From positions 1-37,800 of the IMG/VR virus record IMGVR_UViG_3300031218_000005: 37,800 nucleotides of DNA; one strand, given 5' to 3'. This document shows, piece by piece, positions 29,576-37,800 of this stretch (the first letter of the stretch is position 1; every line of letters starts with the position of its first letter). The notes beneath the pieces were generated by a model that was given only the letters and a program-made list of their open reading frames with translations, did not search any database and had not been told where the DNA came from. The position numbers were made by a program, and so were the translations under genes. This DNA comes from a virus.

Positions 29576-29985
29576 TTATTTAATTTTATTTTTAAAGATT
29601 TAAGCAATCTCTCATCACTTTTATCAGGTGCTTTATTTAGGCTATCTATTTCTTTTTTATTCTTTTCTATTTTAGCTTGCAGAGATTTTAATAATTTCTT
29701 ACTAAGATATGCTTCTCTCTTAGCTTGTATTATAGAATCTTGGCTTTGTTCTATCTTTGTAGAAAGTATACTATCCATTTCTTTTAATAAAACATATTCT
29801 CCCTTTATACTATCTAATTCAAATGTCAAGGAATCTCTTTTGGCTATAAGACTCTCATTTTTAGCATTAAGCCTTTCTATATCTTCCTTGTATGAATCAT
29901 CTGTTTCGAAATATTCCTTGTATATAAAAAATACTAATAGAAAGAATAAGACTGTTATTAGTATTGATTTATTATCTAATTTCAT
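29572..29985 (-). CDS. Membrane-anchored coiled-coil protein, i-spanin (Rz)-like
   Basis: A 137-residue protein with an N-terminal membrane helix (SILITVLFFLLVFFIYKEYF) followed by an almost continuous coiled coil rich in Lys, Glu, Asp, Ser and Leu. This is the topology of Rz-type inner-membrane spanins, about Rz length (153). It shares a four-base ATGA overlap with the exported protein at 29078. No endolysin or holin gene is seen nearby, so a lysis role is tentative. A TAATATATA and an A-rich leader precede the ATG. Confidence 0.65.
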   Translation of the reverse strand: MKLDNKSILITVLFFLLVFFIYKEYFETDDSYKEDIERLNAKNESLIAKRDSLTFELDSIKGEYVLLKEMDSILSTKIEQSQDSIIQAKREAYLSKKLLKSLQAKIEKNKKEIDSLNKAPDKSDERLLKSLKIKLNK

Positions 29986-30019
29986 ATATTTTATTTTTTT
30001 CTTATATATTATTTTGCAT

Positions 30020-30052
30020 TATCCACATATTATCTATATATTTGTCAAAAAA
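30020..30052 (+). promoter_or_regulatory. Bacteroidetes-type promoter TTTG-N20-TATATTTG
   Basis: TTTG (about 30013-30016), 20 bases, then TATATTTG (about 30037-30044), close to the Bacteroidetes -33/-7 consensus TTTG-N19-21-TAnnTTTG. The ATG follows some ten bases later, so the leader would be very short. The genes behind it are enzymes, not structural, and the phage TTAATATATA motif is absent. Confidence 0.55.
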
Positions 30053-30053
30053 A

Positions 30054-30572
30054 ATGATTAAAGAACTATACTGTTTCGATTTTGACAAAACACTGTGCTT
30101 AACACCAGAGCCAAAAGAAGGTAAAGTTATATGGAAAGAAAAGACTGGTGAGGATTGGGGACACCGAGGTTGGTGGGGTAAGTCTGACTCTTTAGATACT
30201 GATGTATTTGATATACCAAAGGTTGATTGGATTTATGAAGAATATCTAAATGCAGTTGCTAGACCAGATTCTTACGTCATTATGGCTACTGGGAGACAGA
30301 ATAGAGTAATGGGAATGAGATCCCGTGTTGAAGAAATTATTAGAAGCCACAATATGTCCTTTGATGAGGTTCATTTATGTAGTGGTCACGATACATTTAC
30401 ATTTAAAGTAAAGCTATTTGAAAATCAAATAGAAAATACTAAATGTGAACACTTCACTATGTATGATGATAGGGCTGAGCATTTAGAAAAATTCGCTAGG
30501 TGGGGAGAAACACAAAAGATAAAGATTACAATAATCGACTCAATTAACAAAACTATAAAAACATTTAATTAA
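30054..30572 (+). CDS. HAD hydrolase, Swiss-army-knife RNA-repair-like type
   Basis: A 172-residue HAD enzyme, taking the ATG at 30054; the frame is open 90 bases upstream, but that part is hydrophobic AT-rich sequence and lies ahead of the promoter. Motif I is YCFDFDKTL (D9, D11), the TPEPKEGKVIW and GWWGKSDSLD segments are those of the HAD_SAK type (Swiss-army-knife RNA repair-like), motif II is VIMATGR, and MYDDR is motif IV. Substrate unknown; RNA ends are plausible from the family name and from the presence of a polynucleotide kinase and RNase R in the window. The ClpS gene follows after five bases. Confidence 0.78.
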   Translation: MIKELYCFDFDKTLCLTPEPKEGKVIWKEKTGEDWGHRGWWGKSDSLDTDVFDIPKVDWIYEEYLNAVARPDSYVIMATGRQNRVMGMRSRVEEIIRSHNMSFDEVHLCSGHDTFTFKVKLFENQIENTKCEHFTMYDDRAEHLEKFARWGETQKIKITIIDSINKTIKTFN

Positions 30573-30577
30573 TAGCT

Positions 30578-30856
30578 ATGACAAAGATAAAAGAAGAAAC
30601 TAAGACAGAAGTAGAAGAAATATTATCTAGTCCATATAGACTAGATTTACACAATGACTCCCATAATTCATTTGAACATGTTATTAAGTGTTTGATAAAT
30701 ATATGTGGACACGAAAAAGAACAAGCAAATCAATGTGCACACATTGTACACTTTAAAGGTATTTGTGATGTTAAGTATGGTGATTATGAGACTATTTCTA
30801 GTATGAAAGAAAAATTGTCAAATAATGGACTGCTTGTTACTATGGAGGAAAACTAG
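30578..30856 (+). CDS. clpS: ClpS-like protease adaptor
   Basis: A 92-residue protein, short like cellular ClpS (about 106), which brings N-degron proteins to ClpAP/ClpCP. The core matches: YRLDLHNDSHNSFEHVIKCL (ClpS: VxLxNDDYTPMEFVxxVL), then EQANQCAHIVHFKGICDVKY, and a C-terminal LLVTMEEN. N26 and D27, and H58, line up with the N-degron pocket residues N34, D35 and H66 of E. coli. The second Asp (D36) is Ser and the Met40 gatekeeper is Phe, so the specificity may differ. It probably shares a promoter with the HAD gene. It may redirect host proteolysis during infection (inference). Its end is four bases from the convergent terminase gene. Confidence 0.85.
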   Translation: MTKIKEETKTEVEEILSSPYRLDLHNDSHNSFEHVIKCLINICGHEKEQANQCAHIVHFKGICDVKYGDYETISSMKEKLSNNGLLVTMEEN

Positions 30857-30860
30857 CTGA

Positions 30861-33800
30861 TTACCTGCGTCTTCCATATCCACCACTTGACTTATATTTG
30901 CTCTGACCATATCCACCACCAGTTCTAGAACCAAGTGTTTTTTTCTTCACATCTAAAAAGTGTGTGTAATCATTACTTTCTATATAATCAGATTTTTTCA
31001 TACACTCATTTATGTAATCAACTATTTCCTTATCAACATGTTTGTTCATCCATTCGTGTATCATCTCTGAAAACTCGTTCTTTTCGAATATAGATGTAGC
31101 ATTTACAATAGTCATGACACAATTATGTACAACTATCCCATTTGCTACATAACTATTATCATCCTCTACTTCTAAATTATAAGTTGTTCCAGTATAATTA
31201 TACTTTTCATTTCTTTGTAGTACTGACGAATATTCAAAATCAGAAATCTTTCTCATACATGACCTTTCTAAACTATCTTCATAAATAGATACCCAATATT
31301 GGCTTTTCGTAGGCTTACCATATCTATGTCTTTTATTATAGGATATTACTGCATGTTTGTCTAATGATATAGATATATCTCTCATAGTCAATGCTAGTTG
31401 AAAACTAGTTGAACATCCTATATAATGTTTAGTCTTACCAGGTGTTTCACAGAGCCAACCATCTCCCTTTATCCAATAATCTAGGACTAGGGACATTTTC
31501 TCTTTATCTAGTTTGTTATAGAGCATTTCGGGGAATATTTTCTCTTTATCTTCATCATAGCATTTAGAAAATATTTCCCATAAGAATCTATTATAAAATA
31601 TCACAGTAGTGCAATTATTTCTATTCTGTACATGATATTTTAAATTCCAGTTATTTATTATATCCTTCATTTCATCAATAAGAGTTAAATCTTTATCATT
31701 AAAGGCTAAAGTTATTCGGTAAGTATTATGAGATGGTTTATAACTGTTACCATCTGCTAAGAATAAGCCTAAAAACTTAGCAAAATTATTATCTAGTTCT
31801 ATTTCCTTTATTTTAAAATTAGATGACGGAGAATATTTATTCCTTTCAAATAATTCTTGATATTTGATATTATTAACATCACCAGTATATAGAGGTGATT
31901 TTATAACAACACACCTAGATTTATTAGAAATGTCACTTGGTAAAATCCACTCTCGCTTAAGATAATTATTATAATTCTTTCTATTTTTCTTTGAGTAGTC
32001 ATTTTTTGGAACATATATAGGATGGTTATATGTTATATCTAAGCTAGGTTGGCCTCTAAATTTGATTCTGTGCATAACACCATCAAAATCTTTTTTACAT
32101 ATATTTGTTACTGGTTTGTAATTTCCTAAATGTGTTAACACCAACTCACCTAATTTGATATCTTTTATTCTTTTATAACCATTTATAGTCTTTATAAGAG
32201 TGTTTGGCAAAACGCAATCATCGTTTCCATTATCTGCTGCATATTTTATATTGCCAGAACTAGTTGTATGTTTTACAAATGTGGTTATTTCCCTTATGGT
32301 GTCTTCATTATTTATTGAGAAAGATTTACTAAGCATTAGAGATTGGTAGTCTTTTATAAGTAAATTTTTTAAACTTGTTACTTTAAGTCCTACCTTTTCT
32401 TCTGGTGAATCTATTCTGTGCTTATATCTAACAAATACAGAAGAACCATAATCATTAATACCATCAAAAACATGAGGTAGTTCTGCTAGTAATGTATTTC
32501 CATAGTTGTTAAGTTCTAAAACTATTTTAAGGTTATCTGGATTAAAATATTCAAAAGCTAATATATAAAGCAATTCTGACATTTGTTTAATAGATATTAT
32601 ATTACTTCGATATATCCCAATTTGTTCTAGTTTGAAAAAATCCTTTATTGATGAATACTTTTCTTTTTGTATATCTATGACCTCTCTACTTTTATTACTT
32701 ATTCTGAATATGTTTATAACAGAAAAATCTTGACCTAATCCCTCTGCAAGGTCAATTGATAAGACTATTTTATATTCTTTTCTTTTTATAGGGTTGTATA
32801 TATCATAATCATCAACCCATTTTAAATTTTCATAGGAAAAATTTAGCTTATCTTCAAATTCATATATCTCCTCCCACTCATAAAGAATTTTATTATTCAA
32901 TAAATGGTCTATAATATTTTCACTTAGTAAAGATTTACTAGCATTTACAAATCTAAGACCGTATTCTTGGTTAAAAGCATCTTCTCCACCAATATCTTTT
33001 ATTGCCTCATCCTTCCATGTAGTAAGTTCTGCTAACTCTAGTATAGATATCTCTTTGCCATCGGGTGTTTTTATATTAAATCCAACAACATCCTCATCAT
33101 GACAATAATCATTATTATAGACCTCGATTACATATTTTTGTAAATCAACACTCCAACTCATTTCGACCTTAGTATCAGCACCCCATTTATTATGTACTTG
33201 ATTAAAAACATTATCCTTTTCTATTTTGTTTTCGTATAATTTATGGTCATTAAGCCTTATATATGTAACAAACCTACCAGGGACTTGGTACCAGTAAACC
33301 CTCATAGGTGTGTAGTTATTTCTTTGTGGGTCACCAGCTGGTCGTTCTGCATTAGTAAGTAATTTATGAAATAAATTCATACCATTTGGTGTAGATGTTA
33401 TTATTATTTTAGAGTTTTTTATTGCAGATACTGTTGGAAAAACCGCAGTATAATATGGTTCTATTATGTTTGAAGGAATATGTGCAAATTCATCTAAATA
33501 AAGAACATCAATAGTAAAACCAATAGCTGGAGTCTTTGTCCTAGCAGAGGTCTTAATACGACAACCATTGTCAAATGTCAGTGATTTTTGATTCCATGTT
33601 TTTATACCAGGTTTTAAAAAAAATGGTAGTAATGAATAAATGGATTTTATCTTGTCAACAATCTCAACTGATGTATCACCCTTGTTAGCAACAATCATAA
33701 TGTTTTTATCATTATTGAATAGTATTGTATGAAGCATAAATATAGAAGCAGATATAGTATTGTGTGAAAGTATTCCATTTGTGTAGAACCTATGATTCTG

Positions 33801-34208
33801 ATGGTCTACCGATAAATCAAACATAGATGATTTATAATCTTCCCTTTTTATATGCTTCACAATACTATTGCCATTTTTGGTCTTTATAGTATCGCCTATT
33901 TTTAATTCTTTACAGAATACTTCATCAAAATATTCATCAAATAATATATGATTATCTGCACAAGTTAAGCTAAGACCGTCAATAGTTTTGATATTATAAT
34001 GATTAAATGGTTGTGTTAAATGTATCTCAGATACTGCCTCATATCCAGTATCAGTCTTTACTCTAATATCTATTAAAGATATAGATTTTAATATTTTTTT
34101 AGAAATATCATCCTCATCCAATGATACATTTCTATATTGGTATTTTTCTATCAACTCAATAGATTTTTCTATCAACTCAATCAATATTTTTTTAAGAAGT
34201 GTAATCAT
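30861..34208 (-). CDS. terL: Large terminase, C-terminal part, with C-intein half and full intein
   Basis: An 1115-residue chain in four parts. Residues 1-150 are the C-terminal half of a split intein (33759-34208) ending in SHN before T151. The terminase begins TISASIFMLH, which completes the Walker A motif begun as SRQVGK in the gene at 35293-35808. Walker B is VLYLDEFAH (about 235-243); ITSTPNG (about 270-276) is motif III. The nuclease domain has SIDLAEG (D485), LELNN (E565) and NDD (663-664). A second intein, 665-1029, interrupts NDD/CVM; the terminase resumes at C1030 and ends in a Gly/Tyr/Arg-rich tail. Spliced terminase would be about 717 residues (T4 gp17: 610). Both interruptions lie in catalytic motifs, so activity should need both splicing events. 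Confidence 0.95.
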   Translation of the reverse strand: MITLLKKILIELIEKSIELIEKYQYRNVSLDEDDISKKILKSISLIDIRVKTDTGYEAVSEIHLTQPFNHYNIKTIDGLSLTCADNHILFDEYFDEVFCKELKIGDTIKTKNGNSIVKHIKREDYKSSMFDLSVDHQNHRFYTNGILSHNTISASIFMLHTILFNNDKNIMIVANKGDTSVEIVDKIKSIYSLLPFFLKPGIKTWNQKSLTFDNGCRIKTSARTKTPAIGFTIDVLYLDEFAHIPSNIIEPYYTAVFPTVSAIKNSKIIITSTPNGMNLFHKLLTNAERPAGDPQRNNYTPMRVYWYQVPGRFVTYIRLNDHKLYENKIEKDNVFNQVHNKWGADTKVEMSWSVDLQKYVIEVYNNDYCHDEDVVGFNIKTPDGKEISILELAELTTWKDEAIKDIGGEDAFNQEYGLRFVNASKSLLSENIIDHLLNNKILYEWEEIYEFEDKLNFSYENLKWVDDYDIYNPIKRKEYKIVLSIDLAEGLGQDFSVINIFRISNKSREVIDIQKEKYSSIKDFFKLEQIGIYRSNIISIKQMSELLYILAFEYFNPDNLKIVLELNNYGNTLLAELPHVFDGINDYGSSVFVRYKHRIDSPEEKVGLKVTSLKNLLIKDYQSLMLSKSFSINNEDTIREITTFVKHTTSSGNIKYAADNGNDDCVLPNTLIKTINGYKRIKDIKLGELVLTHLGNYKPVTNICKKDFDGVMHRIKFRGQPSLDITYNHPIYVPKNDYSKKNRKNYNNYLKREWILPSDISNKSRCVVIKSPLYTGDVNNIKYQELFERNKYSPSSNFKIKEIELDNNFAKFLGLFLADGNSYKPSHNTYRITLAFNDKDLTLIDEMKDIINNWNLKYHVQNRNNCTTVIFYNRFLWEIFSKCYDEDKEKIFPEMLYNKLDKEKMSLVLDYWIKGDGWLCETPGKTKHYIGCSTSFQLALTMRDISISLDKHAVISYNKRHRYGKPTKSQYWVSIYEDSLERSCMRKISDFEYSSVLQRNEKYNYTGTTYNLEVEDDNSYVANGIVVHNCVMTIVNATSIFEKNEFSEMIHEWMNKHVDKEIVDYINECMKKSDYIESNDYTHFLDVKKKTLGSRTGGGYGQSKYKSSGGYGRRR
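31122..32216 (-). mobile_element. Complete LAGLIDADG intein in the terminase nuclease motif
   Basis: A 365-residue intein, residues 665-1029 of the terminase chain. Block A is CVLPNTLIKTINGY, block B is LDITYNHPIYV, the LAGLIDADG helices are FLGLFLADG (about 812-820) and DYWIKGDGWL (910-919), and blocks F and G are YNLEVEDDNSY with NGIVVHN before C1030. All splicing residues (C1, the block B Asn-His, the penultimate His, the last Asn, the +1 Cys) are present, and both catalytic acids of the homing domain are there. It sits between the Asp-Asp pair and CVMTIV of the terminase nuclease domain. Confidence 0.93.
33759..34208 (-). mobile_element. C-terminal half of the terminase split intein
   Basis: 150 residues with block B (LSLTCADNHILFD), a LKIGDTIK segment, block F (MFDLSVDHQNHRFYTNG) and block G (ILSHN before Thr). 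Block B normally lies in the N-terminal half, so the break is between blocks A and B. The first 25 residues (MITLLKKILIELIEKSIELI, EKY) form a Leu/Ile/Lys/Glu helix with two identical heptads, coded by a tandem 21-bp duplication. Confidence 0.93.
34143..34181 (-). repeat. 21-bp tandem duplication coding for IELIEK heptads
   Basis: TTTTTCTATCAACTCAAT occurs at 34143-34160 and 34164-34181, a period of exactly 21 bases, which codes for two copies of the heptad at the start of the C-intein half. Confidence 0.9.
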
Positions 34209-34225
34209 TTTTTTATTATTTTTAT

Positions 34226-35221
34226 CTATACATTATTTAAAAAATCTATACATTTTTTAATAGTTAAATCTTTTTTGCTTTTATATTCAGTATCCCATAT
34301 TATTAGAATATCAAATCCTTTTGATTTAGCAATATTTATTTTTAAATTATCTTTATCCCATATTTCCCTTGCAGTAGGTCCACTTTCTTTATAGAAAGGA
34401 TGTGGATAATCGTTCTCTTTGAAAGTTTTAGGATTTGCATGGTATAAATCACCATTGTATTCGATAATTTTCATTCTTTTTCTATCAGTGAAGTCATATG
34501 AGAAAAATCCTACATCTTTAACTGATATAAAGAACTCTTTATTTTTTATTGCATAGTGTACACGTTTTAGTTCATTATCTGTATAAATCTTACTTATCTT
34601 TTTAAATAAGTCTTGTGATATTTCAGAATAGCCACATTTCATATTACCATTTTCTGCCAAATTTTTCTGCCAAAGTGTTTGTCTATCTAGCCATCTTTTC
34701 TTACCACCAACATCACCATGTTTTTCTACACATTTTTTTAGAGAAAATGTACTTTGTCTTTCGCTAAGCATCTTTTTAGATGTTTCCTCATCATAACCTT
34801 TCAGTAAATAGTATTCTAAAGTAGTATCTGATATTCTATCCTTAATAGCTTCCTTTGCAAAAATACTTATATGCTCCTCTATATTCTCTACACCTTCATA
34901 TTTTGAAAAATTCTTTGAAAATGGACTTCTTGATTTTCTTTCTAATTCAGTTGTATTTTTTTTGTGATTAGGATTTTTTGTGCCTCTTATTTTTTCAGCA
35001 AACATTTTTTTATACTTTTCTTTCTTCATATGCTTACCACCATTAATTGTTGTCTTAGCCTTATCTGATAATGCCATTATAGGAGCACCTTCGTACAATT
35101 CTTTATATTCTTTAGTAGTCATGTTATTATGTGCAAATTTTAAATGCTTTCCATATATTCTTTTGCATTGCTCACCACATATTCTACATGTTACCGTTTC
35201 TTTATTGTCATTTATTATCAT
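34226..35221 (-). CDS. Vsr-like (EDxHD-type) homing endonuclease inside the fractured terminase
   Basis: A 331-residue nuclease lying between the two terminase gene parts on the same strand. The N-terminal CRICGEQCKRIYGKHLKFAH (C12, C15, H26, H31) and TTKEYKELY resemble Ros/MucR zinc fingers. Basic helices follow. The nuclease core near the C-terminus has FFSYDFTDRKRMKIIEYNGD followed by LYH, then a Lys-rich helix and FDILIIWDTEY, the order of Vsr/EDxHD nucleases (cf. EYNGLYWHSE and IWEDDW in the KYGV family). It has no KYGV repeats. It carries its own TTTATATATA and a leader. The context is the fractured-gene arrangement of split intein plus free-standing nuclease. Confidence 0.82.
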   Translation of the reverse strand: MIINDNKETVTCRICGEQCKRIYGKHLKFAHNNMTTKEYKELYEGAPIMALSDKAKTTINGGKHMKKEKYKKMFAEKIRGTKNPNHKKNTTELERKSRSPFSKNFSKYEGVENIEEHISIFAKEAIKDRISDTTLEYYLLKGYDEETSKKMLSERQSTFSLKKCVEKHGDVGGKKRWLDRQTLWQKNLAENGNMKCGYSEISQDLFKKISKIYTDNELKRVHYAIKNKEFFISVKDVGFFSYDFTDRKRMKIIEYNGDLYHANPKTFKENDYPHPFYKESGPTAREIWDKDNLKINIAKSKGFDILIIWDTEYKSKKDLTIKKCIDFLNNV

Positions 35222-35252
35222 AATTTTATTTTGTTTTCTTTTTATATGCTTT

Positions 35253-35262
35253 TATATATAAA
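35253..35262 (-). promoter_or_regulatory. TTTATATATA late-promoter-like motif of the inserted nuclease
   Basis: Motif variant 31 bases before the ATG at 35221, with an A-rich leader (AAAACAAAATAAAATT), as for leadered genes. Confidence 0.45.
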
Positions 35263-35292
35263 AAGTTGTTGGCTTCCTATCAAATAGGTAAA

Positions 35293-35457
35293 TTATTTTT
35301 CTAACAGGAATAAAATATCATATAATTTTATTTTTATTTTTTCTAATAATGTTAGTGATCTTTCTTGTTTAAGCATATGATAATATAGTTTACCAATTCT
35401 ATATTCTTTTCTAATTTCCTTGCTCTTAATTTCGCATAAAGTGTTGAAGGTCAAGCA
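35293..35457 (-). mobile_element. N-terminal half of the terminase split intein
   Basis: 54 residues plus stop codon, starting with the catalytic Cys (C118). Only block A is present; block B is in the other half. The length is about twice the 25-residue N-half of the AceL-TerL intein, the extra being the helical tail. Confidence 0.9.
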
Positions 35458-35808
35458 CTTACCCACCTGCCTACTAGCCATTAATATATTGAATCGATTA
35501 TCAACAAAATTATCTAATATGTCAGCTTGGTAGTCTCTAAGTGTTATTGCTCCAATAGAACCATCTTCTCTTTTCACCTTACAGTATTTTTCGGTAAAAT
35601 GGTGTATATCTAGTGCACATTTAACGTATTCTCCTTGTTCGGCACTTGTCATCTTAAATGTAAGACCTGATCTTCTTAACCCTATTTCATTTTTAAGCCA
35701 TGGGTTTTGAAACCTTTTTAGTACTATACCATCATTTATCTTATCAGTAGCCTCGGTAACGTTCTCACTACTAAATACCATTTGTCTTTCTTTCTTAATC
35801 TTTGCCAT
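35293..35808 (-). CDS. terL: Large terminase, N-terminal part, with N-intein half
   Basis: A 171-residue chain. Residues 1-117 are the N-terminus of the large terminase: AEQGEYVKCALDIHHFTEKY, then ITLRDYQADILDNF (the adenine-binding Q motif) and FNILMASRQVGK, where Walker A stops after Lys117. Residues 118-171 are a 54-residue N-intein beginning CLTFNTLCEI (block A) and ending in an Ile/Leu/Lys/Glu helix (LTLLEKIKIKLYDILFLLEK). After trans-splicing, K117 would join T151 of the gene at 30861-34208, giving SRQVGKTISAS, a standard terminase P-loop. The gene is divergent from the possible small terminase gene. Confidence 0.93.
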   Translation of the reverse strand: MAKIKKERQMVFSSENVTEATDKINDGIVLKRFQNPWLKNEIGLRRSGLTFKMTSAEQGEYVKCALDIHHFTEKYCKVKREDGSIGAITLRDYQADILDNFVDNRFNILMASRQVGKCLTFNTLCEIKSKEIRKEYRIGKLYYHMLKQERSLTLLEKIKIKLYDILFLLEK

Positions 35809-35821
35809 AAGCGACTTATTT

Positions 35822-35836
35822 TTTTATATATATTAT
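35822..35836. promoter_or_regulatory. Shared divergent TATATA region
   Basis: The 42-base gap between the divergent terminase and candidate small-terminase genes holds one TTATATATATTATAA block that can serve either strand, flanked by A and T runs. Confidence 0.4.
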
Positions 35837-35850
35837 AAAAAAACAGCTCT

Positions 35851-36501
35851 ATGTCTAAAACAGATAAAGAAAAAAGTAGGATACAAGACGAATTTGATCA
35901 AATACAAGGGGAGAATAATGATTTTGATATATCAAAACATTTGGCAGAAGCAGAAGATTTACCAGACCTTGGTGAGATAAGCTTGTATGATTATGATGCA
36001 GATTTAAGCACATCATCACAGCAATCAGTGGAGGTTTTAAGTTCACTTATAGACTTATACCTAAGTGATGTTCCAAAACTAAAACAACATCCTTATATAA
36101 AAAATAAGATGAAGGAAGATGCTATGGTATATTCAGAGGCTATATTCTTGGCTAAAATGACTAGAAAAAACTTCCTTAACCAACTACGCCAAATTGATAA
36201 TGGGGAAAGCTCAGCTAGAATGCACGAAGTTGTTAACCAGACTATTGTACAAGTTAGAGAAAACTCTAAATTTCTATCCACTCAAAGAACTGACTTAGAA
36301 AAGTTCTATAAAGATCTAAGAACAGATATGGGATTAGACGATATTGAAAATTCAGAGGTTTTAGAGTCACAATCTGATAAAGCGAAAGATTCACAAGATG
36401 ATGGTGATATTGTTGATAATAGAAAACTAAATGACCTTATAAAAGGAGCAATGATGAAAGAAGGTGATAATAAAAAAGAAAGTAAGGGTAAAAAGAAGTA
36501 A
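35851..36501 (+). CDS. Unknown acidic/helical protein, candidate small terminase
   Basis: A 216-residue, mainly helical, highly charged protein without recognised domain. The N-terminus is acidic (EAEDLPDLGEISLYDYDAD), the middle helical (SLIDLYLSDVPKLKQHPYIK, ENSKFLSTQRTDLEKFYKDL), the end lysine-rich. Its place directly next to the terminase gene, divergent from it, and its all-helical nature make a small terminase subunit (gp16-like) possible. No sequence motif proves it. It abuts the convergent gene at 36502 with no spacer. Confidence 0.6.
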   Translation: MSKTDKEKSRIQDEFDQIQGENNDFDISKHLAEAEDLPDLGEISLYDYDADLSTSSQQSVEVLSSLIDLYLSDVPKLKQHPYIKNKMKEDAMVYSEAIFLAKMTRKNFLNQLRQIDNGESSARMHEVVNQTIVQVRENSKFLSTQRTDLEKFYKDLRTDMGLDDIENSEVLESQSDKAKDSQDDGDIVDNRKLNDLIKGAMMKEGDNKKESKGKKK

Positions 36502-37353
36502 TTATATTTTTAAGTACTTAAATGTTTCAAAAGTTTTCACTAAATTATTAGCATGTATTAGAATATCTTTTTGTTTAAAGATGTTTCTTTGGTTATATGT
36601 TACCTCCCTAACCATAACGTATTTATCTACTCTATTCGTAATGTCATGGATATTATTTTTTATATCATCGCTAGTATTACTCATTATTGTGGTAAACACA
36701 TCGTTTATATTAATAGCCAAATCAATAGATTTTTTATTTTCATCATAAAAGTGGACTGTGTTATAATTCTCAACAACTGTATCTGTAAATTTGTCACCAT
36801 CAGTTTTATAACCGAACAAATGTTGTAATAAGAGTCTTGTTTTTAGATATGAGATATAATCTTTATCTCTATTATAAAATGTTTCTGATAGAAAGTAATA
36901 ATCTTTTACTACTAGATTCATATCACACAATTCCTTCTCTAAGCTATCTATAATCGTTTTGTAGCTACTTTTACTTTTTTTAGAACATATTATGTATATA
37001 TCATCGTTTTTGTTTCTAAGGTGCTGAAAATGCTTCTTATAGATAGTGTAGTCTAAATTTTCTATAATACTTGTATTCATAAATTCTTGTAAGGAGAATG
37101 ATAGGTCAGTTATGTTGAACTTCATACTTTTACTCTTAATCTTTAGTGTGTTGTAAAGGTTTTCTGGTAGCCAATATCCAACATCATCAATATTAAGCAT
37201 AGAATTATATTTCTTATAGATACCTTTTTTTATTAAATTGAATTCTGATTCAGTTAATTTAATGATGGGTATCGAAGGTTTATTCTTAGAGACTAACCAT
37301 ACTGAATTATCTATCTTAATAAGTGTATCAATGTCAAAAAAATGTGCCTTCAT
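36502..37353 (-). CDS. HAD-like protein, function unknown
   Basis: A 283-residue protein whose start, MKAHFFDIDTLI, looks like HAD motif I (D7, D9). IYIICSKKS (about 118-126) could be motif II and VHFYDENKKS (about 206-215) motif IV, the order and spacing of a large HAD domain. No clear motif III Lys is identified and the substrate is unknown. No signal peptide. It starts one base after the stop of the zinc-ribbon gene upstream and lacks an own TTAATATATA, so the two are probably one transcription unit. Confidence 0.65.
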   Translation of the reverse strand: MKAHFFDIDTLIKIDNSVWLVSKNKPSIPIIKLTESEFNLIKKGIYKKYNSMLNIDDVGYWLPENLYNTLKIKSKSMKFNITDLSFSLQEFMNTSIIENLDYTIYKKHFQHLRNKNDDIYIICSKKSKSSYKTIIDSLEKELCDMNLVVKDYYFLSETFYNRDKDYISYLKTRLLLQHLFGYKTDGDKFTDTVVENYNTVHFYDENKKSIDLAININDVFTTIMSNTSDDIKNNIHDITNRVDKYVMVREVTYNQRNIFKQKDILIHANNLVKTFETFKYLKI

Positions 37354-37354
37354 A

Positions 37355-37606
37355 TTATTTGCTATATTTATTAGTTTCAGTATACCTTATTTCCTCTTGT
37401 CCACCACCCTTTGGTTCATCTTCATATTCTCTATCTTCCCATGTTACTCCACCACTTGTTTGTGAGTTAAAGCTTTTGCATTTACTACATTCCTTTGGAA
37501 ATACACTTTTTCCATCTTTTTCTATTGCTTTATCAATATCATAGTAAAAGGGAGCTTTGCACCAAGGATTATTACACACTAATCTTTTTTTATTTTCTCT
37601 ATCCAT
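37355..37606 (-). CDS. Small zinc-ribbon protein
   Basis: An 83-residue protein with CNNPWC and CSKCKSF pairs (C11, C16, C40, C43), a likely four-Cys zinc ribbon, followed by NSQTSGGVTWEDREYE and a disordered acidic end. Its function is not known. It is preceded by a perfect TTAATATATA, four bases from the ATG, and followed after one base by the HAD-like gene. Confidence 0.7.
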   Translation of the reverse strand: MDRENKKRLVCNNPWCKAPFYYDIDKAIEKDGKSVFPKECSKCKSFNSQTSGGVTWEDREYEDEPKGGGQEEIRYTETNKYSK

Positions 37607-37610
37607 AATC

Positions 37611-37620
37611 TATATATTAA
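37611..37620 (-). promoter_or_regulatory. TTAATATATA late-promoter-like motif
   Basis: Perfect motif, four bases (GATT) before the ATG of the zinc-ribbon gene. Confidence 0.6.
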
Positions 37621-37623
37621 TTA

Positions 37624-37762
37624 AAAAACATGCAAGATCATGACTATATAGATATTATAATATAAATTTTGTACTTGTATAGAATTTTAGTTAAAATAAA
37701 TCCTTTTTACTTACAAAAACATGCAACATCATGATATATAAATATATTTAATATAAAATTTT
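37624..37762. repeat. Imperfect direct repeat in the non-coding right end
   Basis: Two copies of about 47 bases, 37624-37670 and 37715-37762, share AAAAACATGCAA, then ATCATGA, TATA-rich sequence and AATATAAA with TTTT. The first has GATC where the second has CATC. The 194 bases from 37607 to the window end hold no gene that I can see; a regulatory or origin-type role is possible. Confidence 0.55.
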
Positions 37763-37800
37763 CATTTTATTAGACTTTCGCTTAGTGCAAATTCATATAT

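What the first reader, a model, noticed from the sequence alone, without database searches (positions are those of the whole stretch)
30861..35808. Fractured terminase: split intein in the Walker A motif with a nuclease gene between the halves
The large terminase is coded by two genes. The first stops in an N-intein just after SRQVGK, the second starts with a C-intein ending SHN before T. Joining them restores SRQVGKT, the ATPase P-loop. A Vsr-like nuclease gene lies between, on the same strand. This is the fractured-gene arrangement (split intein plus free-standing EDxHD-type nuclease) known from metagenomes, and the block A / block B break resembles the AceL-TerL intein. No ATPase should form without trans-splicing, which could time DNA packaging.
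Basis: partly seen in the sequence, partly recalled or inferred. Interest (0 to 1): 0.92.

Follow-up and report, generated by a model that had tools for sequence, protein, structure and literature searches.

The report
Phage packaging motor split by inteins
A virus related to giant phages carries its DNA-packaging motor gene in two pieces that must be joined at the protein level by a self-splicing split intein, with a homing-nuclease gene in the gap and a second intein in the motor's DNA-cutting centre.

Summary
Confirmed. terL is coded by two minus-strand genes: 35293-35808, ending in a 54-aa N-intein after SRQVGK, and 30861-34208, starting with a 150-aa C-intein ending SHN before T. A 331-aa nuclease gene lies between (34226-35221). 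In 63 of 80 fetched TerL relatives the two parts abut exactly. The nuclease's catalytic half models as Vsr / I-Bth0305I. This is a fractured gene of the known type, with four additions. (1) The C-half holds a second, contiguous LAGLIDADG intein at the nuclease motif NDD|C. (2) Both intein halves carry an extra helix at the break; five one-ORF relatives carry both as a presumed hairpin, so the gene breaks at the hairpin tip. IntN is about 55 aa; published natural atypical ones are 15-37. (3) The two intein halves share a history separate from the exteins' (partial r 0.40, p 0.001). (4) The split also occurs without a nuclease, with an antisense one, and with halves 12 kb apart in a 735-kb phage. 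Splicing, homing and helix docking are inferred, not shown; a role in timing packaging is untested.

The parts
35458..35808 (-). TerL N-extein, 117 aa, ends MASRQVGK (first part of Walker A)
   Evidence: phrog_5989 terminase large subunit E 2.8e-17; abuts the C-extein in 63 of 80 relatives
35296..35457 (-). N-intein of intein 1 (54 aa, Cys1, block A), followed by a stop
   Evidence: Cys in 62 of 62
35296..35361 (-). N-tail helix of the N-intein (RSLTLLEKIKIKLYDILFLLEK); presumed docking arm
   Evidence: present in 12 of 12 split loci compared; continuous with the C-head in one-ORF relatives; role inferred
34226..35221 (-). Vsr / I-Bth0305I-like nuclease gene (331 aa), presumed homing endonuclease
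   Evidence: catalytic half residues 195-331: Vsr 1cw0 Z 11.6, 3r3p Z 10.4; E229, D243, H261 invariant in 9 sequences
33759..34208 (-). C-intein of intein 1 (150 aa; block B CADNH, ends SHN)
   Evidence: Cat 6dsl E 6e-7 by sequence; VidaL and Cat best by fold
34131..34205 (-). C-head helix of the C-intein (residues 2-26); presumed docking arm
   Evidence: helix in the model, pLDDT about 73; present in 12 of 12 split loci compared; role inferred
32217..33758 (-). TerL C-extein part 1 (514 aa: Walker A Thr, ATPase, most of the nuclease domain)
   Evidence: PF03237; gp17 alignment of an intein-free relative
31122..32216 (-). Intein 2: contiguous LAGLIDADG intein, 365 aa, between GNDD and CVMT
   Evidence: PF14890 1.3e-15; intein_Cterm; empty site in L010; relatives at the same site
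30864..31121 (-). TerL C-extein part 2 (86 aa: CVMT... to the end)
   Evidence: abuts part 1 in L010 and in intein-free relatives

Best explanation
A fractured terL. Two polypeptides are made. Their intein fragments meet, helped by the helix that each carries at the break, fold into one Hint domain and splice in trans by the class 1 route (Cys1, C-terminal Asn, Thr+1), joining SRQVGK to TISAS so that the Walker A lysine and threonine end up in one chain. A second intein splices in cis and closes the nuclease motif NDD-CVM, so that both active centres need splicing. The nuclease gene in the gap codes a homing endonuclease whose target is inferred to be intein-free terL near the P-loop codons; repair copies N-intein, nuclease and C-intein together. 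Shown: the anatomy, both joins, the nuclease fold, exchange of cassette parts, purifying selection. Inferred: splicing, the nuclease's target, docking by the helices.
For: Exact joins in relatives: site 1 in 63 of 80; site 2 empty base for base in L010. Cys1 62 of 62, Thr+1 80 of 80. The C-intein model's two best PDB matches are VidaL and Cat, the atypical split inteins; its sequence matches Cat from residue 38 on (E 6e-7). Nuclease residues 195-331 match Vsr (Z 11.6) and I-Bth0305I (Z 10.4, 95 of 97 residues, 2.6 A). Split or free changes 7 times on the extein tree, at least 6 forced. L010 against the window: flanks and exteins 97-99.6% identical at DNA level, N-intein 58%, C-intein 65-67%, nuclease catalytic half 62%, nuclease residues 1-165 96%. 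N- and C-intein distances correlate with exteins held fixed (partial r 0.40, p 0.001); the intein-extein partials are 0.00 and 0.01. N-intein dN/dS 0.07-0.43 in the five diverged same-type pairs. Five of five one-ORF loci carry both helices in a row. No Rfam match at 30000-37800.
Against: No splicing or cleavage data exist for this locus. The two halves could not be modelled together. The C-intein model is middling (mean pLDDT 67.7, pTM 0.45) and TM-scores to known inteins are low (about 0.3). The N-tail's amphipathicity beats shuffles at p<0.1 in only 6 of 12 loci. A free-free pair (L067/L073) differs as much next to the site as split-free pairs do, so a co-conversion footprint rests on codon choice alone. 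In the near-copy pair L007-L013 cassette dS exceeds extein dS (N-intein 0.28, nuclease residues 1-165 0.11, Cext1 0.04). The nuclease's N-terminal half has no confident model.
Confidence: 0.87

Rival explanations
1. Plain selfish fractured gene: split intein and nuclease as described, but the extra helices are leftovers of a loop and play no part in docking; the Hint halves associate alone, as in AceL-TerL.
For: AceL/GOS-TerL and VidaL work with 16-37 aa IntN (review passages); N-tail amphipathicity is weak; SCTP-2 has the same intein type split with a short C-intein head.
Against: Helices are kept in 12 of 12 split loci compared, including the 735-kb and 462-kb phages, in the six short-gap splits without the nuclease that I read, and in a row in five of five one-ORF forms.
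Confidence: 0.45
2. Splicing-controlled packaging: the phage keeps the inteins because slow or conditional splicing at both active centres times assembly of the motor.
For: Both catalytic centres are interrupted; the C-intein-bearing, dispersed form persists without a nuclease between the halves in a 735-kb phage.
Against: 63 of 80 relatives do without intein 1; int2 is absent from L010 with nearly the same exteins. No condition dependence was tested.
Confidence: 0.08
3. The two TerL pieces work as separate subunits without splicing (genes in pieces).
For: Such a case is cited for a ribonucleotide reductase split by a homing endonuclease (passage in PMC10448857).
Against: The split falls between the P-loop Lys and Thr; splicing residues are kept and both intein halves are under purifying selection.
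Confidence: 0.03
4. The gap is an RNA intron, or an assembly or sequencing artefact.
For: terL of other huge phages is broken by group I introns (Jug phages, PMC12363816 passages).
Against: No Rfam match; the same anatomy in 48 of 80 loci and in a named 462-kb genome; intein blocks on both sides.
Confidence: 0.01

Closest known systems
AceL-TerL and GOS-TerL atypical split inteins, and their consensus Cat (6dsl)
   Same: TerL host protein; short IntN; break after helix a1 (S2 position, PMC13014065 passages); Hint core
   Different: Thr+1 (GOS-TerL uses Cys+1, PMC11766414 passages); IntN 49-62 aa (theirs 25 and 37); IntC about 149 aa; a helix on each side of the break. The exact AceL/GOS insertion sites were not seen in a text here.
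Fractured genes of Dassa et al. 2009 (paper not held; known from citations and recall)
   Same: two extein genes, split intein, free-standing nuclease between
   Different: second intein in the same protein; relatives that lost the nuclease, have an antisense one, or are dispersed
Aeromonas phage Aes123 polB (L112): N-intein gene, VSR endonuclease gene, C-intein gene
   Same: same gene order; its VSR endonuclease matches P0003 residues 199-326 at 30%
   Different: other host gene; the break leaves block B on the N-half (sequence, my reading)
I-Bth0305I / Vsr nucleases
   Same: fold of the catalytic domain; E, D, H conserved
   Different: own N-terminal half (weak ROS_MUCR match); in type B relatives the catalytic half differs
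Contiguous TerL inteins of Ackermannviridae (Salmonella phage Maynard, Klebsiella phage KpS110, LIMEstone1, Vibrio phage BX-1)
   Same: same site, GK|C...SHN|T; C-intein homologous
   Different: one ORF, 159-179 aa, without the two helices
Mycobacteriophage TerL inteins (PMC5050341, passages)
   Same: TerL as a frequent intein host
   Different: their seven sites all lie in the ATPase domain; int2 here lies in the nuclease domain

Membership tests
Fractured gene (split intein plus free-standing nuclease) | Two extein genes with complementary intein fragments | tested here: met
Fractured gene (split intein plus free-standing nuclease) | Nuclease gene of its own between the halves | tested here: met
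   14 of 15 split loci (the other is cut by a contig end)
Fractured gene (split intein plus free-standing nuclease) | Protein trans-splicing | not testable with these tools
   needs expression or proteomics
Atypical split intein (AceL-TerL type) | Break between blocks A and B with a short IntN | tested here: met
   IntN 54 aa, block B in the C-half; longer than the 15-37 aa reported
AceL-TerL / GOS-TerL allele | Same insertion site and nucleophiles | tested here: inconclusive
   Thr+1 in 80 of 80 against Cys+1 in GOS-TerL (passage); the source papers are not held, so the sites were not compared
Class 1 intein | Cys1, block B His, C-terminal Asn, Cys/Ser/Thr +1 | tested here: met
   C1, H87, N150, T+1
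EDxHD homing endonuclease | Vsr-like fold as in I-Bth0305I | tested here: met
   Z 10.4 over 95 of 97 residues; Foldseek prob 0.99, E 0.054
EDxHD homing endonuclease | Conserved E, D, H, D catalytic residues | tested here: inconclusive
   E229, D243, H261 invariant across types A and B; the last Asp is not aligned with confidence; motif recalled
EDxHD homing endonuclease | Cuts the intein-free allele | not testable with these tools
   needs purified enzyme
LAGLIDADG maxi-intein (int2) | Splicing blocks plus two LAGLIDADG motifs | tested here: met
   PF14890 1.3e-15 in the window; PF14528 in relative L182; motifs FLGLFLADGN and LDYWIKGDGW read in the sequence

The most novel reading that the evidence does not exclude
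A natural split intein that carries its own docking device: the intein has broken, more than once, at the tip of a helical hairpin, leaving one arm on each half. The arms hold the halves together, so the split outlives its nuclease, survives 12 kb of separation in a 735-kb phage, and the two halves pass on as a matched pair. With the second intein, splicing must close both the ATPase and the nuclease centre of the packaging motor.
Probability: 0.5. Interest if true: 0.75.

Novelty: new variant of a known kind. Interest (0 to 1): 0.64.

Why it matters
How split inteins arise and persist is unsettled. This family holds the stages side by side: intein-free, contiguous with a short loop, contiguous with both helices, split, split with a same-strand nuclease, split with an antisense nuclease, and dispersed. 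That makes the order of events testable. If the arms drive docking, the family is also a source of short, self-pairing split inteins with Thr+1 for protein engineering. For phage biology it shows an essential motor whose ATPase and nuclease both depend on splicing.

Tried and rejected
RNA intron: no Rfam family reached its gathering score in 30000-37800. PDB sequence search with the nuclease alone gave only one chance match at E 0.52; its profile reached Vsr at E 1.4; the fold comparison was needed. Distance test for co-conversion: not clean, because the free-free control L067/L073 also had 6 mismatches in the 30 nt left of the site. What remains is codon choice next to the site: Ser AGT in 7 of 8 distinct split sequences against 5 of 43 free, Val GTG in 4 of 8 against 0 of 43; the Fisher p values (5e-5, 3e-4) ignore relatedness. 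Amphipathicity: C-head p<0.1 in 12 of 12, N-tail in 6 of 12 (near-copies among the 12), weak evidence alone. Cassette younger than exteins by dS: in five of five diverged same-type pairs the nuclease halves and C-intein have lower dS than Cext1, the N-intein in three of five; the near-copy pair L007-L013 goes the other way; values are near saturation, so I lean instead. Whole C-intein identity does not separate the two alleles (across 52-61%, L010-L070 60%); the N-intein does (16-30% across), and shared C-intein features such as a 3-aa insert in the head helix do. The first C-intein tree held a wrongly cut row (Kuja, my extraction error); it was dropped and the tree rebuilt. My working note that L121 has no nuclease upstream was wrong: its contig has the end of one at its edge. 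Origin of the contigs: one paper search for six IMG numbers found none; whether they come from Ace Lake, the source of AceL-TerL, is not settled. Dassa 2009 and Bachmann 2015 are not held. That the helix-armed form and an intein in the TerL nuclease motif are not in print rests only on the ten paper searches, seen as listings, and passages of seven papers.
Full report
ANATOMY. All parts lie on the minus strand. The N-half gene (35293-35808) codes 117 aa of TerL ending MASRQVGK, then 54 aa beginning CLTFNTLC, then a stop. After 71 nt comes a 331-aa nuclease gene (34226-35221), and 17 nt after it the C-half gene (30861-34208, 1115 aa), which opens with 150 aa ending TNGILSHN and goes on TISAS. 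The C-half also holds a second, contiguous intein of 365 aa (31122-32216) between GNDD and CVMT: Pfam Intein_splicing 1.3e-15, NCBIfam intein_Cterm with two stretches in the protein, two LAGLIDADG motifs readable in the sequence.

THE JOINS ARE REAL. 208 relatives of C-extein part 1 were found in viral contigs and the best 80 kept. By tblastn of the parts, 63 of 80 have N- and C-exteins abutting exactly, 15 of 80 are split with a C-intein, 2 of 80 are cut off. Of the 15 split, 14 have the nuclease; the fifteenth (L051) begins 36 nt before the C-half. An intein-free relative, L015, matches T4 gp17 (3ezk, whole-sequence E 4e-48), with SRQVGKT over SRQLGKT; in the nuclease domain HDDCVM lies over HDDLVM, though that stretch scores only 10 bits by itself. 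So site 1 separates the P-loop Lys from Thr and site 2 follows the acidic pair of a nuclease motif. The empty second site is seen base for base in L010, whose exteins are 98-99% identical to the window's.

INTEIN 1. The residue after RQxGK is Cys in 62 of 62 N-halves with a readable stop. The junction is HN|T in 80 of 80 loci of the C-intein survey; the HN was partly selected by the search pattern, the Thr was not. Two distant relatives depart: LR756500 ends SSQ|T and LR756501 NLN|T. Block B (CADNH) lies in the C-half, so the break is between blocks A and B. By sequence the C-intein matches Cat, the AceL/GOS-TerL consensus, from residue 38 on (6dsl, E 6e-7), then gp41-1 and VidaL. An AlphaFold2 model of the C-intein (11 sequences, mean pLDDT 67.7) has VidaL and Cat as its two best PDB matches, at low TM-scores. 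IntN is 49-62 aa (median 55, n 62) and IntC has a median of 149 aa (n 71) in the 80 loci. Published natural atypical IntN are 15-37 aa (PMC13014065, passages).

THE BREAK IS AT A HAIRPIN TIP. The surplus is one helix on each half: an N-tail (RSLTLLEKIKIKLYDILFLLEK) and a C-head (MITLLKKILIELIEKSIELIEKY; model helix 2-26). Both occur in 12 of 12 split loci compared, down to the 735-kb and 462-kb phages. In five of five one-ORF loci (L194-L197, L203; inteins of 194-203 aa) the two stretches follow each other directly. Ackermannviridae inteins at the same site (KpS110, Maynard, LIMEstone1, 159 aa; BX-1, 179 aa) are one ORF without these stretches. On a C-intein tree of 66 rows (57 labelled: 7 contiguous, 50 split) contiguous and split forms need 5 changes, at least 4 forced, and one clade of contiguous forms is rejected (AU p 0.004; only 104 columns, so a rough tree). 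The hairpin and its docking role are inference.

THE NUCLEASE. The model (9 sequences) is poor over the N-terminal half and mostly pLDDT 70-92 over residues 200-329. Residues 195-331 match Vsr 1cw0 (Z 11.6, 118 aligned, 2.9 A) and I-Bth0305I 3r3p (Z 10.4, 95 of 97, 2.6 A). E229, D243 and H261 are invariant in 9 sequences. The N-terminal half is conserved (70-99% identity among the ten loci other than L006), while the catalytic half comes in two types, A (window, L013, L010, L012, L070) and B (L057, L058, L076, L080; L006 is closest to B), 33-38% alike between the types without L006. In L069 the second piece of a broken nuclease gene reads as type B. That the constant half aims at terL is inference.

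MOBILITY. On the extein tree (62 rows, 60 labelled) split or free changes 7 times, at least 6 forced; L070 is split while its neighbours L067 and L073 are free. L010 against the window: flanks and exteins 97-99.6% identical at DNA level, N-intein 58%, C-intein 65-67%, nuclease catalytic half 62%, nuclease residues 1-165 96%, int2 absent. The N-inteins of L010, L012 and L070 are 16-30% identical to the window type; their C-inteins share features of their own, such as a 3-aa insert in the head helix. Over 40 distinct loci (thinned from 65 with both halves, one-ORF loci included) N- and C-intein distances correlate with exteins held fixed (partial r 0.40, p 0.001 by 999 permutations), while the intein-extein partials are 0.00 and 0.01 and extein-extein is 0.91. 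N-intein dN/dS is 0.07-0.43 in five diverged same-type pairs; near-copy pairs give 0.03-0.55 on few changes, and the cross-type pair L007-L010 0.65. In those five pairs the nuclease halves and C-intein have lower dS than Cext1, the N-intein in three of five; the near-copy pair L007-L013 goes the other way.

STAGES. The best 80 of at least 347 C-intein loci: 48 split with a type A or B nuclease between; 15 with the N-half upstream and no such nuclease; 5 one ORF; 12 without an N-half in the held upstream DNA (L176 and L180 have 3.5 kb there, L192 2.3 kb, L154 1.5 kb; the other eight under 0.9 kb). Of the 15, nine have gaps of 196-453 nt (counted from the end of the N-extein, N-intein included); five (L142, L144, L157, L158, L174) hold a 574-576 aa antisense ORF with a Vsr-like motif (Pfam DUF7487 in L157, the one scanned); and L187 lacks a readable GK|C. 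L159 has nearly the same intein as L157 without that insert. In LR756501 (735,411 bp) the halves lie at 623865-624410 and 609226-611493, 12.4 kb apart with ORFs on both strands between; no nuclease of this family matched between them, the only match in that genome lying outside, at 595385-595612 (36%, E 1.6e-8). So the split can persist without its nuclease in the gap.

SECOND INTEIN. int2-like sequences occur in 9 of those 80 loci (73 decidable): six of the window's lineage, L182, L183 and L180. The site reads [HN]DD|C...HN|C in L182, L183 and L180, and in L121, which has a C-intein too, and L122. Mycobacteriophage TerL inteins lie at seven sites, all in the ATPase domain (PMC5050341, passages). 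More than one insertion in one terL has precedent: an intein and an intron in Campylobacter phage IBB_35 (PMC3322345, passages).

CONTEXT. The TerL exteins are 71-74% identical to those of 634- and 642-kb phage genomes, and contigs with related terL reach 476 kb, so the window is probably a piece of a huge phage; the record is 37.8 kb long. A Terminase_6N search found a single hit in a 201-kb contig of the same lineage; that contig also holds three more distant relatives of the nuclease.

VERDICT. A true fractured terL with a presumed homing nuclease: a known kind, in a variant with a helix on each side of the break, a second intein in the other active centre, and a full series of stages among relatives.

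Noticed in passing
L108:2959-3852 and L113 (Salicola phage SCTP-2, MF360958): terL is in at least three pieces: a C-intein at the P-loop, then a second split N-intein at the Walker B region (SLLY|CLDGETTV...), with the N-terminal piece about 170 kb away.
   Followed up: partly
L107 (LR756501 699854-701026, minus strand) and L006:5913-6701: Both the 735-kb and the 462-kb phage carry a second TerL-like ATPase ORF whose P-loop reads SRQMGI[TS], without the lysine.
   Followed up: no
L124:1489-4197 (Pseudomonas phage PA5oct): A UvsX-like recombinase opens with a C-intein (SHN|SGKS) right after a gene whose end matches the nuclease: probably another fractured gene.
   Followed up: no
L157:1760-3484 (minus strand); also L142, L144, L158, L174: A 574-576 aa protein with a Vsr-like motif is coded on the opposite strand between the split halves; L159 has nearly the same split intein without it.
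   Followed up: partly
L069:4582-5558: The nuclease gene is broken into two overlapping frames while both intein halves stay open.
   Followed up: no
L111:3842-6560 (Caulobacter phage Cr30) and L127:1135-2019 (LIMEstone1 F-LimIX): Nuclease genes stand directly upstream of terL: a 30% relative of P0003 before an intein-free terL in Cr30, and the annotated homing endonuclease F-LimIX before an intein-bearing terL in LIMEstone1.
   Followed up: no
L006:3938-5827 and LR756501 C-half: C-inteins end in SSQ|T and NLN|T instead of SHN|T, so the usual penultimate His is absent.
   Followed up: no
L123:3450-5183 (Campylobacter phage CJLB-13): A related C-intein opens a terL ORF but joins at SHN|SSKST, a few residues upstream of the window's site.
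   Followed up: no
window 30578-30856 and 29964-30572 (+): A ClpS-like adaptor (PF02617, 2.5e-15) and a HAD_SAK_1 protein lie next to terL on the other strand.
   Followed up: no
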